This document shows, in pieces, positions 10,049 through 15,243 of a stretch of DNA of 48,321 nucleotides; position 1 is the stretch's first letter; each line of letters starts with the position of its first letter. This DNA comes from a virus, in IMG/VR virus record IMGVR_UViG_3300010296_001812, positions 1 through 48,321 of that record. One strand, 5' to 3'. The position numbers were made by a program, and so were the translations under genes. Under the pieces are notes generated by a model. The model had not been told where the DNA came from, made no database searches, and saw only the letters and a program-made list of their open reading frames with translations.

Positions 10049-10411
10049 CTATTTATAAGATTTTTCGTGATATATACCCGCAGACTCCAACAATTCTAAT
10101 GCAAATTCTTGTTTCTTATCTAACTCTTGATAATAGACATGAGTTATTCCTGACTGAATTATCAATTTCGCACAAGACACACACGGAGAAAGGGTTATAT
10201 AAATCTTATGTCCCTGTGTCGCAATACCTAATCTGGCTGATTCGGATATTATTCTAGCTTCTGCGTGTTGTGTCGTATCAGGATGTTCTCTTTCAGTTAG
10301 GTGTGTATTATGTGAAGAGATACCATTAGTGAGGTATGCGCCAACCTGATATCTCTTGTTTTTGGACAGTTCTTTTTGTTCGATTGCGAAATTCATGAAC
10401 GTATCGGTCAT
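10049..10411 (-). CDS. Cytidine / deoxycytidylate deaminase family protein
   Basis: This 120-residue protein has the zinc-deaminase core: His49-Ala-Glu51 ('QHAEARII') and Pro-Cys77-x-x-Cys80 ('SPCVSCAKLI'), after the family-typical start 'FMNFAIEQ...YQVGAYL'. The family hydrolyses the amino group of dCMP or cytidine; in T4-type phages the usual member converts dCMP to dUMP for dTMP supply. It is shorter than T4 Cd (193 residues) and lacks the extra zinc-binding insert, so substrate is uncertain. Its start overlaps the Toprim gene by 86 bases. A late octamer for gp48 lies over its stop codon. Confidence 0.82.
   Translation of the reverse strand: MTDTFMNFAIEQKELSKNKRYQVGAYLTNGISSHNTHLTEREHPDTTQHAEARIISESARLGIATQGHKIYITLSPCVSCAKLIIQSGITHVYYQELDKKQEFALELLESAGIYHEKSYK
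10050..10057 (-). promoter_or_regulatory. T4-type late promoter TATAAATA for gp48 and the baseplate run
   Basis: This is a perfect minus-strand octamer, 37 bases upstream of the ATG at 10013. It coincides with the stop region of the deaminase gene. It is positioned to drive the gp48-gp53-gp27-gp5-amidase-spike run. Confidence 0.72.
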
Positions 10412-10904
10412 ATCCGATTTCCTTTATTAATTCATAATTATCATTACAGTTTTTTATATCAAAGGTAAATGATTTATCACCCACAGTTTCCAAAATCCAA
10501 TTTGTCTGACTATATCCAGTAAAGTCATTATCAAACGCAGTAATGATTTTATCAAATGATTTAATATAATCTAATGATTCTTGTAACATCATAGTAGGAA
10601 TATTACTATGACATGTTGTTCCTACAATTGGTGGAATCATATTAGTCGTTCTGAGAAAAGCTTCCGCAACAACGAGAACTTCAATTTCACCCTCAACAAT
10701 TATCAGTTCTTCACCACCCCTATCGAATATACTACTTCCATATAATTGTAGTATTCTGTCTGCCTTGTGTCGCCATACTTTAGTATCATCTGATAAGTTT
10801 CTCTCTTGGGTAAAACCTTCTCCTATATAAGGCATATATAACTTATGAGAATCTGTATACGCACCATACTTGTCTAGAACTGTTTGGGATATTCCTCTAA
10901 TCAT
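10326..10904 (-). CDS. Truncated T7-type primase: Toprim-domain protein
   Basis: From ATG 10904 the protein is 192 residues. It begins 'MIRGISQTVLDKYGAY' and has Toprim catalytic residues Glu71 (IVEGEIE) and Asp125-Asn-Asp127 (AFDNDFTG). These blocks match the central part of T7 gp4-type primases ('RGIs..t...yG', 'TEGEiDalsv'). The N-terminal zinc-binding domain and the C-terminal helicase are both absent. Earlier in-frame codons exist, but a perfect late octamer ends five bases before ATG 10904, supporting this start. A fragment able to bind metal but without template recognition could be a relic or a partner of another primase. Its 3' end overlaps the deaminase gene. Confidence 0.72.
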   Translation of the reverse strand: MIRGISQTVLDKYGAYTDSHKLYMPYIGEGFTQERNLSDDTKVWRHKADRILQLYGSSIFDRGGEELIIVEGEIEVLVVAEAFLRTTNMIPPIVGTTCHSNIPTMMLQESLDYIKSFDKIITAFDNDFTGYSQTNWILETVGDKSFTFDIKNCNDNYELIKEIGYDRYVHEFRNRTKRTVQKQEISGWRIPH

Positions 10905-10909
10905 TTTTT

Positions 10910-10917
10910 TATTTATA
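10910..10917 (-). promoter_or_regulatory. T4-type late promoter TATAAATA for the Toprim gene
   Basis: This is a perfect octamer followed by AAAAA and ATG 10904, the same five-base spacing as at gp25 and at 11408. It lies in the 12-base gap between two divergent genes and touches the first base of gp4. Confidence 0.65.
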
Positions 10918-11393
10918 TGGCATATTCTGGTAGATATCGGGTAAAAAACCCAACGAAATATAAAGGTGACCACACCAATGTGGTCTACCGTTCCCTATGG
11001 GAGAAACATGCATTCAAGTGGTGTGATGATAATCCTAGTGTGGTTGAATGGTCATCCGAAGAAGTTGTAATACAATACTTATATGAAGTCGATAAGAGGT
11101 GGCATCGTTACTTTGTAGACCTAAAACTCAAGATGGAAAATGGAAAGACCTATCTGATTGAGATAAAACCAGATGCACAGACTCAACCCCCTACAGGTTC
11201 AAGGAGAACAAAAAGGTTTTTGAGTGAAAGTTTTACTTATGTCAAGAACATGAACAAATGGCAAGCAGCAAATGAGTTCGCAAAAGATAGAGGTTGGCAC
11301 TTCCAGATATGGACGGAGAAGAACGAACCATTGAAGAGTCTTATTCCCAAATCAACAAAACCATTAAAACCTTTCCAAAAACGTAAAAAATAA
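10917..11393 (+). CDS. gp4: Head completion protein gp4
   Basis: From ATG 10917 the protein is 158 residues and matches T4 gp4 nearly end to end: 'SGRYRVKNPTKYKGD', 'VVYRSLWEKHAFKWCDDNPSV', 'VEWSSEEV', 'RYFVDLKLKMENGKTYLIEIKP', 'QAANEFAKDRGWHFQIWTE'. gp4 closes the filled head before tail joining. It has a TnsA/PD-(D/E)XK-like nuclease fold, with the visible D-(x)n-E-x-K set in 'FVDLKLK...LIEIKP'. A TTG start further upstream (10884) is rejected because homologous sequence begins at this ATG. No good Shine-Dalgarno is seen. It starts the plus-strand structural run. Confidence 0.93.
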   Translation: MAYSGRYRVKNPTKYKGDHTNVVYRSLWEKHAFKWCDDNPSVVEWSSEEVVIQYLYEVDKRWHRYFVDLKLKMENGKTYLIEIKPDAQTQPPTGSRRTKRFLSESFTYVKNMNKWQAANEFAKDRGWHFQIWTEKNEPLKSLIPKSTKPLKPFQKRKK

Positions 11394-11407: not shown

Positions 11408-12001
11408 ATGAGTAATATCTTCAACAGACTGGAACTACAGGCATTCCGCGCTGGGGTGACGCCACGCACCAAAGAAAGTCGTGATTGGTTTCGGAAGAAA
11501 GCATCGAATCTTCGTTCAATCAACCGTAATGAGTTGATGAAAGAAGAACCGCTCAAACGGAGAGCGCAACGTGGCGTGGTCGGTTCGATGCAGATGTTCT
11601 TCTATGACCCAAAGACCAAAGACAAACTACCATATTATGATGTATTTCCATTGGTTGTCGTAGTCGGGCCTGCGGAAGGTGGATTCTATGGATTGAACCT
11701 TCATTATCTCCCACCAATTCTTCGTGCAAAGATGTTAGACTCATTAATGGAAACCGCGACTAGTAAGACATCTGATGATGCAAAGTTCGCAATAACATAT
11801 AGTAAATTACAAAGTATTTCAAAGCTGAGATATTACAAACCATGTTTCAAACACTACTTGAATAAACACGTTTCGAGTAAATTTGCAGAAGTCCCTGCAC
11901 CCGAATGGGAGATTGCAACCTTTCTTCCAACCGCAGACTTCCGTAAGTCAAACTCACAAAAAGTATTCTACGATTCAAGACAGATGATAGGTAAAGGTTA
12001 A
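11408..12001 (+). CDS. Conserved structural-cluster protein, function unknown
   Basis: This is a 197-residue basic protein. Its N-terminal 65 residues are Arg/Lys-rich ('RTKESRDWFRKKASNL', 'LKRRAQRG'). A compact core follows with 'YDVFPLVVVV', 'GFYGLNLHYLPP' and 'RYYKPCFKHYLNKHV'. I recall the 'YDVFPL..GlNlHYLP' pattern from other large marine myophages, without a settled function. It lies between gp4 and a tail-tube-fold protein and overlaps the latter by one base (TAATG). A late octamer sits five bases before its ATG. A DNA-contacting or neck/tail role is possible but only inferred from charge and position. Confidence 0.8.
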   Translation: MSNIFNRLELQAFRAGVTPRTKESRDWFRKKASNLRSINRNELMKEEPLKRRAQRGVVGSMQMFFYDPKTKDKLPYYDVFPLVVVVGPAEGGFYGLNLHYLPPILRAKMLDSLMETATSKTSDDAKFAITYSKLQSISKLRYYKPCFKHYLNKHVSSKFAEVPAPEWEIATFLPTADFRKSNSQKVFYDSRQMIGKG

Positions 12002-12702
12002 TGACAACTCGTATCGATGATTTCAAATCACAGGTAGGTAAAGCTGGTGGTTTTGCAATGGGAAATCTTTATAAGATTTTCCTTCCGCCTATCTCTGGTG
12101 AAGCAAGAGAGATGAATTTATTGTGCAGAGCCGCATCAATGCCTGGCAGACAAGTCCTCTCCACAGAGAAACAGATTGGTTTACAGACAACCAAAGTCGC
12201 ATATGGATATGCGGTGGATGATATATCTCTATCCTTTCATGTCATGAATGACTATAAAGTCAGAACATACTTTGAGGCATGGCAAAATCTTGCAGTAAAT
12301 CAAGAGACACTAGAAGTAGGATACTACAATGACTATACACACCCTGTCGTGATTCAACAGATAAAAAAGGGTGTCGCATTTCCATTGAAAAAGAAAAAGA
12401 TTTTTGATTCAGGTAAACTACCAAGTTCTATCGCGAATCGTTTACCTCGTATTGGGCCTCTTGATTTGGCGCAAGGCGAGATTGACTTAAATCTACTTAC
12501 AGGTGATAAGATTGCTTATACTTGTATACTAGATAAAGCATACCCAACTACATTGAATGCAATTGAGTTGAGTGATGATGGCCAGAACCTTCAACTAGAT
12601 GTTCAGTTATCTTATAAGAACTGGAGAAGTGAAGGCGGCGATGCAGGCGGCGGCGGATTTATCGAAGGTCTTGCTGGTGAATTGATTAGGAAATTCTTAT
12701 AA
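12001..12702 (+). CDS. Tail-tube-fold protein, probably gp54-like tube initiator
   Basis: This 233-residue protein has the tail-tube (gp19-type) pattern: 'GNLYKIFLP', 'LLCRAASMPGRQV', 'DISLSFHVMNDYKVRTYFEAWQNLAVN', a basic loop, then C-terminal strands ending 'LDVQLSYKNWRSE'. Such proteins form the tube or the first ring on the baseplate. It is longer than T4 gp19 (163) because of a Lys-rich loop and a Gly-rich tail. With gp26/gp51/gp29 immediately downstream, an initiator role (gp54-like) fits best, but a true tube subunit cannot be ruled out because the gp18/gp19 region is not in this window. Confidence 0.72.
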   Translation: MTTRIDDFKSQVGKAGGFAMGNLYKIFLPPISGEAREMNLLCRAASMPGRQVLSTEKQIGLQTTKVAYGYAVDDISLSFHVMNDYKVRTYFEAWQNLAVNQETLEVGYYNDYTHPVVIQQIKKGVAFPLKKKKIFDSGKLPSSIANRLPRIGPLDLAQGEIDLNLLTGDKIAYTCILDKAYPTTLNAIELSDDGQNLQLDVQLSYKNWRSEGGDAGGGGFIEGLAGELIRKFL

Positions 12703-12716
12703 TTGTGGAGTAAATA

Positions 12717-13424
12717 ATGGCGTTACCTAAACTAAACGACAATCTAAAATATGAGATGGCGATTCCATCAACCGATAAGATTGTCACATTTAGACCATAC
12801 TTGGTCAAAGAGGAGAAAGTTCTTCTCTCTGCTTTTGAGTCGCAAGACCAAAAACAGGCAATGAGAGCGATGGTGGATACCGTTATCGCATGTGTGAATG
12901 ATGATATCAAATCAAGCGAACTATCAACATTTGATGTTGAGTATATGTTCACCCAGATTCGTAGTAAGTCTGTCGGTGAGACATCCACACTGATAATGAA
13001 GTGTGATGCAATAGACTGTGATAAGTCCGCCGAAGTTGTGGTTGATTTGACTACGGTAGAGATTGTGAAGACTGATACAGACCCCGTGATTCAGTTGACA
13101 GACGATATCTATGTTGAGATGAGATATCCAACCTATGACGGGTTTGTGAAAAACTTCCGTGAGGGTATTAGTGAAGCGGAGTTTGGGTTTCAAATGTTGG
13201 AAGATTGCATCGTAGCAATTATGACCGATGATGAGAAACACATGGTCAATGAAGTAAGTAAGAAAGAATTGAATGAGTTTATTGACTCCATGACCAACAG
13301 TCAGTTTGAAAAGATTGGTAAATTTCTTCAAACTGTTCCAGTCATGAAAAAAGAAGTCGAGTTCACTTGTGAGTGTGGTCATGAAAATAAAGTAACACTG
13401 GAGGGTCTTCAAGATTTTTTTTAG
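12717..13424 (+). CDS. gp26: Baseplate hub assembly protein gp26 (T4_baseplate family)
   Basis: This 235-residue protein matches the T4 base plate protein family at its N-terminus ('ALPKLNDNLKYEMAIPSTDK', 'FRPYLVKEEKVLL'). Its C-terminus is the family-typical 'CECGHENKVTLEGLQDFF'. Paired cysteines near 95-100 and 219-221 suggest a zinc ribbon. A Shine-Dalgarno (GTGGAG) precedes the ATG. The gene ends in a run of eight T and a TAG, the site of a probable -1 frameshift into gp51. gp26 acts in hub assembly in T4. Here, lying immediately before the tape measure, it occupies the place of a tail assembly chaperone. Confidence 0.9.
   Translation: MALPKLNDNLKYEMAIPSTDKIVTFRPYLVKEEKVLLSAFESQDQKQAMRAMVDTVIACVNDDIKSSELSTFDVEYMFTQIRSKSVGETSTLIMKCDAIDCDKSAEVVVDLTTVEIVKTDTDPVIQLTDDIYVEMRYPTYDGFVKNFREGISEAEFGFQMLEDCIVAIMTDDEKHMVNEVSKKELNEFIDSMTNSQFEKIGKFLQTVPVMKKEVEFTCECGHENKVTLEGLQDFF
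13400..13424 (+). promoter_or_regulatory. Probable programmed -1 ribosomal frameshift site
   Basis: GGAGGG (13400-13405) lies nine bases upstream of an eight-T run (13415-13422) that reads GAT TTT TTT TAG in the gp26 frame. A -1 slip on T TTT TTT avoids the TAG and continues into the gp51 frame. An internal Shine-Dalgarno at this distance is the known stimulator arrangement in dnaX. A weak hairpin (ATGC, loop CTCTC, GCAT) follows at 13426-13438. The gp51 frame has no ATG or GTG start before its conserved region. Confidence 0.75.
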
Positions 13425-13612
13425 TATGCCTCTCGCATGATAATTTGGTCAATCATTTCAAGACCAACTTCGCGCTGATGCAACATTTTAATTATTCATT
13501 ACATGATATTGAACATATGATGCCGTGGGAGAGGGAGATTTATCTGGTATTACTGGAAGAATGGCTAAAAGAACAAGAAGAAAAAATGAAAGAAAACAAT
13601 AACGGGTTCTAA
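13421..13612 (+). CDS. gp51: gp51 (hub assembly), probably made as a gp26-gp51 frameshift fusion
   Basis: The -1 frame after the gp26 T-run encodes 63 residues beginning LVCLSHDNLVNHFKTNFALM, then 'HFNYSLHDIEHMMPWEREIYLVLLEEWL' and a charged tail. This resembles the short gp51 proteins of marine T4-type phages. The only start-like codons are TTG 13445 and ATG 13478, both inside the conserved block and without a Shine-Dalgarno; ATG 13426 and 13437 lie in other frames that stop at once. Translation by -1 frameshift would give a fusion of about 298 residues. The stop lies two bases before the gp29 ATG. The coordinates mark the frame after the slip, not an independent start. Confidence 0.78.
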   Translation, partial: LVCLSHDNLVNHFKTNFALMQHFNYSLHDIEHMMPWEREIYLVLLEEWLKEQEEKMKENNNGF

Positions 13613-13614
13613 AA

Positions 13615-15243
13615 ATGGCAGAAGTAACCATAGCACACCTTACCGAAGCGGTTCAGACCGAAGGCGCAGAAAGTGAGAGAAGAGATAATAAACAGATTGA
13701 GCAACTCGCTAGTCTGAATAAATCCTTTGCACAATACTTCAAGGCGCAATCTGCTGATAAACTCGACAAACTCGAAGAAGCACGAGAGAAGGTATCTGGC
13801 CCCGCACCCACTAGAGAGAACTTTAGTGATGCGGCAAAGGGTGCGAAAGATGCATTAGGGTTTGGTCTTCTAGGGTTTCTAGGTATTGTTACTGCCGCAA
13901 TCTCTGGTCTTGCCACGGGTATCGCGGTAGGTCTAGGTAAATACCTCGCTGCACTTGGTAGAACCTTTGATAACTTGACTGGTAATAGAATTGGTAAGGC
14001 GATAACAAACCTTACACGACAAATTAGAGGTGGTGTGTTTAGACTCATAGGTCTGTTACCAAATGGAAAGTTAGACCCAGACTCATCAAAGTTTGCAAGA
14101 TTCTTGAGAGCGGTAAGAAGTCCGTTTGTTAGTGCCACGGGGTTTTTCAAGACTATTCAAGGTGGTATGTTTCGGTTATTTGGACTAGGTATTGATGGTA
14201 AACCAGTAACCACTACATCAAACTTTGTCAAGTCAATACTTAAATTTGGTAATCTCTTCAAACCAATTACAACTGTATTCGCTGAAAGTTTCAAAGAAGT
14301 TGGTTCTGCATTGAAAGGGATTGGTAATACTATCAAGAGTGGTATCAATTCTACCACCAAATTTTTCTCAACTATTGGAAAAACCTTTAGTGCATTGCGT
14401 GGCGCATTGTCTCCAGTATTTACAGTATTCAGGACACTAGGTCGAGTAATCTTTGCACCTCTTACTTTAATAATGAGTATTATCGATGGTATCAAAGGTG
14501 CAATTTCAGGGTATCAACAAGAGGGAGTTTTAGGTGGTATTCTTGGTGGAATCGGCGGTGTTCTAGCTGGACTGGTTGGTATGCCTCTTGACCTAGTAAA
14601 ATCTGCGATTGGATTTATTGCGGGTAAACTTGGGTTTGAAAATGTCCAAGCGGCATTATCTGGTTTCAGTTTTGCTGATATGATTAAAGATACATTCATG
14701 GGTGTTGCCCGTGTATTTAATGATGTTCTTAAAAATCTATTCAGTGGATTTGAGGATGGGTTTAGTGCTGGTCTGTCACAGATGTTTAAGTCAATGATGG
14801 TTTATGTAAAACGACTTTTATTATTCGGGCCAGCAGTTGTGGCGGGTGGTGCAGCAGCATTGGGTGCTGTTTTGCCTGGCGGTGATAGTCCAATCGAGGC
14901 ATTCCAGAAAACATTTAGTAAGGTATTGACTGCGGGTGAAGGTAGTTCTGCAACAACATTACCTACTGAACAAGGGGAGACAGGCGAAGAAGAACCTGAA
15001 CCTCCAATCGCTGCGCCACAAAATGTTGAGAGGGTTGTCCCTCAAAACGAACAGGTGAGAAGTAGACGAGCGAATATTGAAAGAATGCGGGCGAATAGAG
15101 AAGCGAATGATGCTAAAAAGGCTGCAATGGCAGTGAACACCGTGAACGCGCCGACAACTACTAATATGAGTAGTAACACCGCAGTCTTTACTGACCCGAC
15201 TCCCGCGACTGATGACCTAGACAGAGAAGCGGCATCTTTCTAA
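13615..15243 (+). CDS. gp29: Tape measure / baseplate hub protein gp29
   Basis: This 542-residue protein has a tape-measure layout. It has a helical charged N-terminus and three long hydrophobic Gly/Ala/Leu segments at about 81-112, 302-326 and 397-420. Many GxxF/IxxG-spaced repeats lie between them, and the C-terminus is polar and disordered, ending 'TAVFTDPTPATDDLDREAASF'. This matches T4 gp29 (590 residues), which sets tail length and is packed inside the tube. Its position directly after gp26/gp51 repeats the chaperone-tape-measure order of other tailed phages. The transcript ends in the bidirectional hairpin at 15251. Confidence 0.82.
   Translation: MAEVTIAHLTEAVQTEGAESERRDNKQIEQLASLNKSFAQYFKAQSADKLDKLEEAREKVSGPAPTRENFSDAAKGAKDALGFGLLGFLGIVTAAISGLATGIAVGLGKYLAALGRTFDNLTGNRIGKAITNLTRQIRGGVFRLIGLLPNGKLDPDSSKFARFLRAVRSPFVSATGFFKTIQGGMFRLFGLGIDGKPVTTTSNFVKSILKFGNLFKPITTVFAESFKEVGSALKGIGNTIKSGINSTTKFFSTIGKTFSALRGALSPVFTVFRTLGRVIFAPLTLIMSIIDGIKGAISGYQQEGVLGGILGGIGGVLAGLVGMPLDLVKSAIGFIAGKLGFENVQAALSGFSFADMIKDTFMGVARVFNDVLKNLFSGFEDGFSAGLSQMFKSMMVYVKRLLLFGPAVVAGGAAALGAVLPGGDSPIEAFQKTFSKVLTAGEGSSATTLPTEQGETGEEEPEPPIAAPQNVERVVPQNEQVRSRRANIERMRANREANDAKKAAMAVNTVNAPTTTNMSSNTAVFTDPTPATDDLDREAASF

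What the first reader, a model, noticed from the sequence alone, without database searches (positions are those of the whole stretch)
13391..13612. Probable -1 frameshift joins gp26 and gp51 just upstream of the tape measure
gp26 ends GAT TTT TTT TAG. The conserved gp51 sequence (SHDNLVNHFKTNF...MMPWEREIY) continues in the -1 frame with no ATG or GTG start before it and no Shine-Dalgarno of its own. GGAGGG lies nine bases before the eight-T run, as the stimulator does in dnaX. The product would be a 235-residue gp26 and a gp26-gp51 fusion of about 298 residues, directly before gp29. This is the layout of the G/GT tail assembly chaperones of siphophages, suggesting that T4-type gp26/gp51 are the equivalent system.
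Basis: partly seen in the sequence, partly recalled or inferred. Interest (0 to 1): 0.88.

Follow-up and report, generated by a model that had tools for sequence, protein, structure and literature searches.

The report
Phage tail-chaperone programmed frameshift
A marine T4-type virus appears to make a short and a long form of one tail-assembly helper protein by having the ribosome slip back one letter at a run of T's; the site is real and widely conserved, but this arrangement in T4-like phages was described in 2022, so it is a new example and not a new system.

Summary
gp26 (12717-13424) ends GAT TTT TTT TAG. The gp51 sequence continues in the -1 frame with no ATG/GTG at its start, and GGAGGG lies nine bases upstream. 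The predicted fusion is 298 aa.

It is more than chance. In 139 of 191 gp26 loci the gene ends in the slippery heptamer T TTT TTN. On a tree the residue before it (D/S/N) changed at least 21 times, while its last base stayed T in 97 of 97. An SD-like element upstream and RNA structure just downstream both exceed synonymous-codon controls. T4-type phages with a separate gp51 (37 loci) lack the heptamer; their full-length gp51 aligns end to end with the fusion (E 1.1e-21). The top two PDB matches of the gp26 model are the HK97 tail assembly chaperone, but with E of only 0.26-0.28.

It is not new: Vladimirov, Gautam and Davidson (Virology 2022) identified the T4-like tail assembly chaperone genes, and later papers cite them for poly-T slip sites in T4-like TAC-N genes and for separate short and long genes elsewhere. 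What may be added here is the evidence for both stimulators and the exceptions. There is no expression evidence.

The parts
12717..13424 (+). gp26, short form (TAC-N / G-like), 235 aa
   Evidence: PF12322 1.5e-54, phrog_150 6e-59; AlphaFold model pLDDT 94.9
13400..13405 (+). SD-like element GGAGGG, 9 bases before the slip run (inferred 5' stimulator)
   Evidence: anti-SD duplex energy -6.45 vs -5.59 kcal/mol for synonymous shuffles over 106 loci, 0/100 shuffles reach it; no excess in four control windows
13415..13421 (+). slippery heptamer T TTT TTT (T-run 13415-13422), followed by the TAG stop 13422-13424
13424..13484 (+). RNA stem-loop just 3' of the slip site (inferred 3' stimulator)
   Evidence: -14.7 kcal/mol, z -1.93 for the window alone; family-wide z about -1.6 (se 0.17) at this position, near 0 elsewhere
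13421..13612 (+). gp51 tail (TAC-C / T-like) read in the -1 frame; the gp26-gp51 fusion is 298 aa
   Evidence: phrog_634 9.4e-26
13615..15243 (+). tape-measure-like ORF (542 aa) directly downstream (context)
   Evidence: phrog_1272 2.7e-10 and other tail length tape measure families, weak matches
12001..12702 (+). tail-tube-family protein directly upstream (context)
   Evidence: phrog_45 3.3e-31

Best explanation
gp26 and gp51 of this T4-type phage are the tail assembly chaperones that work with the tape measure protein. Most ribosomes end at UAG and give 235-aa gp26 (short form, like lambda gpG). A minority, held up by a GGAGGG-anti-SD contact upstream and an RNA stem-loop downstream, slip back one base on U UUU UUU and give a 298-aa gp26-gp51 fusion (long form, like gpGT). 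The shared N-terminal domain would bind the tape measure and the C-terminal tail would recruit tail tube subunits. T4 and close relatives make the same two forms from two separate genes, 26 and 51. Shown here: slip site, frame, conservation of both stimulators, homology of T4 gp51 to the whole fusion. Inferred: that slippage occurs, at what rate, and the protein functions.
For: Slip heptamer and -1 offset in 139 loci; the residue before the slip changes at least 21 times, its third base never, in 97 loci; SD-like element beyond synonymous expectation; 3' RNA structure z -1.57, se 0.17, versus synonymous codons, six control windows -0.39 to 0.05; T4-type gp51 aligns end to end with the fusion, E 5.7e-18 and 1.1e-21, while T4-type gp26 aligns only up to the slip site; 13 complete slip-lineage phage records show no separate full-length gp51, while T4, Aes012 and UTK0003 have one; T4-type gp26 keeps the Phe-Phe without the heptamer; top two PDB fold matches are HK97 tail assembly chaperone 2ob9; location between a tail-tube-family gene and a tape-measure-like ORF; T4 gp26 and gp51 are listed as hub assembly chaperones and gp51 is absent from the particle (PMC3004832).
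Against: No expression, ribosome profiling or mass-spectrometry evidence. The fold match to 2ob9 is not significant by E-value (0.26-0.28), and the T4-type gp51 model shows no such match. The 3' structure has no single consensus across the family (RNAalifold empty). Ackermannviridae-like relatives and D494 lack the heptamer and could start gp51 separately. The window's own hairpin is only moderately stable against shuffles (z -1.93).
Confidence: 0.93

Rival explanations
1. gp51 is a separate small protein started by translational coupling at or near the gp26 stop, not fused.
For: 22 of 139 slip loci have a TAATG/TGATG overlap in the same -1 frame; Ackermannviridae-like L015/L100 and D494 have TAATG and no slip site; GenBank records annotate separate gp51 CDSs.
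Against: The window and most relatives have no ATG/GTG at the junction (64 of 94 lack both in the first 12 -1-frame codons); annotated starts differ between records; it does not explain the invariant heptamer, nor T4 gp51 being a fusion-length protein; the SD-like element sits 9-10 bases before the slip, not at start-codon spacing.
Confidence: 0.05
2. The shift is made by RNA polymerase slipping on the T-run (transcriptional slippage), not by the ribosome.
For: The window has eight T's, about the length at which polymerase slippage begins to matter (general knowledge).
Against: 53 of 106 dereplicated loci have exactly six T's because the heptamer ends in C, A or G; the conserved SD-like element and 3' structure are features of ribosomal frameshifting.
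Confidence: 0.03
3. The T-run only reflects conserved Asp-Phe-Phe residues and phage codon bias.
For: GLxDFF is conserved and the genomes favour T-ending codons (GAT 0.75, TTT 0.74).
Against: T in 97 of 97 versus T followed by TTT in 66 of 146 other D/S/N-Phe pairs; kept across Asp, Ser (AGT and TCT) and Asn, and with a Leu second codon; T4-type gp26 keeps FF mostly as TTC TTT; gp51 is in the -1 frame.
Confidence: 0.01

Closest known systems
Tail assembly chaperones of T4-like phages (TAC-N/TAC-NC; T4 genes 26 and 51), Vladimirov, Gautam and Davidson, Virology 2022, 566:9-15
   Same: Same genes and same two-form logic; citing papers state that T4-like TAC-N genes have poly-T -1 slip signals and that some T4-like phages use separate short and long genes (PMC12846349, PMC10885494).
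   Different: The paper itself could not be read here, so what it says of stimulators or Ackermannviridae is not known to me. The window is a further, uncultivated example.
Lambda gpG/gpGT and HK97-type frameshift chaperones (Xu, Hendrix and Duda 2004)
   Same: -1 slip near the end of the short form, long form with an extra C-terminal domain, directly before the tape measure gene (PMC5009743).
   Different: No sequence match found; only a weak fold match of gp26 to HK97 2ob9. Lambda's slip sequence differs (from memory).
T4 gene 26 and gene 51 proteins
   Same: T4 gp26 aligns with the short form, T4 gp51 with the whole fusion.
   Different: Two separate divergent genes, no slip heptamer.
E. 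coli dnaX -1 frameshift
   Same: SD-like element upstream and stem-loop downstream of the slip site (recalled, not tested).
   Different: Unrelated gene; A-rich slip site.

Membership tests
PF12322 / phrog_150 (T4 gp26/gp51 family) | profile match over the family model | tested here: met
   PF12322 1.5e-54, 3-218 of 219; phrog_150 6e-59
Programmed -1 frameshift | X XXY YYZ slippery heptamer in frame, with an overlapping -1 ORF | tested here: met
   T TTT TTT at 13415-13421, -1 ORF to 13612
Programmed -1 frameshift | stimulatory elements (SD-like 5', RNA structure 3') | tested here: met
   conservation tests; effect on slippage not measured
Programmed -1 frameshift | fusion product detected | not testable with these tools
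   needs proteomics or a reporter
Tail assembly chaperone TAC-N/TAC-NC | short form and C-terminally extended long form | tested here: met
   fusion predicted from sequence; encoded as one full-length gene in T4-type phages
Tail assembly chaperone TAC-N/TAC-NC | gene position between tail tube and tape measure genes | tested here: met
   the tape measure assignment rests on weak profile matches
Tail assembly chaperone TAC-N/TAC-NC | fold shared with known TACs | tested here: inconclusive
   2ob9 ranks first and second, prob 0.85-0.93 but E 0.26-0.28; no such match for the gp51 model
Tail assembly chaperone TAC-N/TAC-NC | binds tape measure and tail tube proteins, absent from virion | not testable with these tools
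   for T4, gp51 is required for assembly but absent from the particle (PMC3004832)

The most novel reading that the evidence does not exclude
T4-type phages use three routes to the long-form function: frameshift fusion, a duplicated full-length gene, and, in Ackermannviridae-like phages and D494, a split chaperone whose C-terminal part is made as a free protein from a start overlapping the gp26 stop. Lineages with both slip site and stop/ATG overlap would make three products.
Probability: 0.25. Interest if true: 0.5.

Novelty: new member of a known kind. Interest (0 to 1): 0.32.

Why it matters
The two-form tail chaperone is a widespread device in tail length control, and T4 was long listed as the exception: a 2016 review says G-T frameshifting is widely conserved 'except T4' (PMC5009743). 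The comparison here agrees with the 2022 resolution and shows both solutions within Straboviridae: slip site in KVP40-like phages and phiAS5, separate genes in T4. It gives a well-defined cassette (SD-like element, slip, hairpin) to test, and suggests that many public gp51 annotations have arbitrary starts.

Tried and rejected
Rfam search of the site: only sub-threshold chance matches. One consensus RNA structure: RNAalifold gave none; hairpins differ in place between lineages. A second full-length gp51 elsewhere in slip-lineage genomes: not found. PDB sequence search with gp26 and gp51 profiles: nothing credible. Fold search with the T4-type gp51 model: nothing credible. Locus L189 has the gp51 frame at +1 and not -1; it lies at a contig edge and may be a sequence error. 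Codon bias or residue conservation, and polymerase slippage, as sole causes: rejected. Novelty of the G/GT equivalence: dropped after the 2022 paper turned up.

Full report
OBSERVATION. The sequence is as described. gp26 runs 12717-13424 and ends GAT TTT TTT TAG; the T-run is 13415-13422, the heptamer T TTT TTT 13415-13421, and GGAGGG 13400-13405 lies nine bases upstream. The -1 frame carries the gp51 sequence from 13421 to a stop ending at 13612 (63 residues; 298-aa fusion). There is no ATG or GTG at its start; the only candidate is a TTG at 13445 that would cut off conserved residues. gp26 matches PF12322 (1.5e-54) and phrog_150, the tail phrog_634 (9.4e-26). The next ORF (13615-15243) matches tape-measure families weakly; the ORF upstream matches a tail tube family.

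CONSERVATION. I collected 191 gp26 loci from phage records and IMG/VR contigs (table). 139 end in T TTT TTN, with gp51 in the -1 frame where the contig reaches it. The 52 without it are 37 T4-type genomes with a separate gp51, 13 Ackermannviridae-like loci, Vibrio phage D494 and one contig-edge locus (L189). The first IMG/VR scan was ranked by a fusion query, which could favour loci with gp51; the second used gp26 only, and all 37 of its non-Ackermannviridae-like loci have the heptamer. Many loci are related, so counts are not independent. For that reason I used a tree that leaves out the slip codons: the residue before the heptamer (Asp, Ser or Asn) changes at least 21 times, while the third base of its codon is T in 97 of 97. 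At other D/S/N-Phe pairs in the same genes only 66 of 146 have T followed by TTT. The stop lies zero or one codon after the slip in 90 of 94 loci.

STIMULATORS. In 106 dereplicated loci, pairing of the region upstream of the slip with the anti-SD averages -6.45 kcal/mol against -5.59 for synonymous shuffles (none of 100 as low); four control windows upstream show no excess. Sixty-base windows starting 2-8 bases after the slip are more structured than dinucleotide shuffles (mean z -1.4 to -1.6, se below 0.2), with values between -0.6 and 0.2 in windows 30 or more bases away. Against synonymous shuffles the 3' window gives z -1.57 (se 0.17, -3.8 kcal/mol) and six control windows -0.39 to 0.05. 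Hairpins differ between lineages and there is no single consensus. The window's own is -14.7 kcal/mol, z -1.93.

THE T4 COMPARISON. In T4 gene 26 and gene 51 are separate and divergent, and gp51 is 249 aa. A profile of T4-type gp51 aligns end to end with the fusion profile (E 5.7e-18 with three sequences, 1.1e-21 with 25). T4-type gp26 aligns with the gp26 part and ends at the slip site (E 1.4e-22). gp51's N-terminal domain is a gp26 relative; Pfam and PHROGs already place T4-type gp51 in the gp26 family. T4-type gp26 mostly ends in Phe-Phe encoded TTC TTT, and none of the 37 loci has the heptamer. In 13 phage records with the slip site a full-length gp51 profile finds no separate gene, only pieces at this locus or nothing. 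In a tree T4-type gp26 and the gp51 N-domain together form one side of a well supported branch (100/99) against gp26 of the other loci. That fits a duplication in the T4 branch, but the tree is unrooted and some rows have long branches. Within Straboviridae, KVP40-like phages (L008, L190, L191) and phiAS5 (L192) have the slip site, T4-type phages the two genes.

STRUCTURE. The gp26 model is confident (pLDDT 94.9). Its two best matches among 350,542 PDB chains are both HK97 tail assembly chaperone 2ob9 (prob 0.85 and 0.93), but E is 0.26-0.28, so this is suggestive only. The T4-type gp51 model (pLDDT 90.6) has a similar order of elements plus three C-terminal helices and no credible PDB match.

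MECHANISM. Most likely: normal termination gives gp26; a minority of ribosomes shift -1 on U UUU UUU and give the fusion; the two forms act on the tape measure as gpG/gpGT do in lambda. The sequence evidence makes the frameshift very likely; its rate and the protein functions are inferred. Three rivals were weighed. A separately started gp51 is possible in some lineages (stop/ATG overlap in 22 of 139 slip loci; Ackermannviridae-like and D494 have no slip site) but unsupported in the window. Polymerase slippage does not suit the half of loci with only six T's. Residue conservation or codon bias alone is contradicted.

PRIOR ART. A 2016 review lists T4 as the exception to conserved G-T frameshifting (PMC5009743). 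Vladimirov, Gautam and Davidson (Virology 2022, 566:9-15) identified the T4-like tail assembly chaperone genes. I could not read the paper. It is cited for poly-T -1 slip signals in TAC-N genes of T4-like phages (PMC12846349) and for some T4-like phages carrying separate short and long genes (PMC10885494). From memory, its abstract names T4 genes 26 and 51 and says frameshifting is kept in several T4-like groups. I found no earlier account of the stimulator statistics or the Ackermannviridae exception in the papers searchable here, but cannot exclude one.

Noticed in passing
L015, L100-L110, L188, L193 (Ackermannviridae and look-alikes); L016 (Vibrio phage D494): gp26 ends ATT TTC AT(T/C) TAA (D494: CTT TTC AAG TAA) with no slippery heptamer although the gp51 tail is still in the -1 frame; some have TAATG at the stop, others TAATT with no ATG.
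   Followed up: partly
L008, L010, L011, L012, L013, L014, L182, L186, L187, L190, L191: Loci with both the slip heptamer and a stop/ATG overlap (TAATG or TGATG) in the same -1 frame, so fused and free gp51 could both be made.
   Followed up: partly
L189:13-585: gp51 frame appears at +1 relative to gp26 (GCC TTT TTT CGT); contig edge, perhaps a sequence error or a different shift.
   Followed up: no
L009, L175, L177 (Aeromonas Tulanevirus type) and L194 (Klebsiella KP27): gp26 of these T4-type lineages is very diverged (long branches; the Aes012 type has lost the terminal FF), and in KP27 genes 51 and 26 lie side by side on one strand.
   Followed up: no
window 10049-10411 (-) and 10326-10973 (-): A dCMP-deaminase-family ORF (phrog_174 1.4e-23) overlaps a 215-aa ORF matching only residues 114-320 of an 801-residue primase/helicase family.
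   Followed up: no
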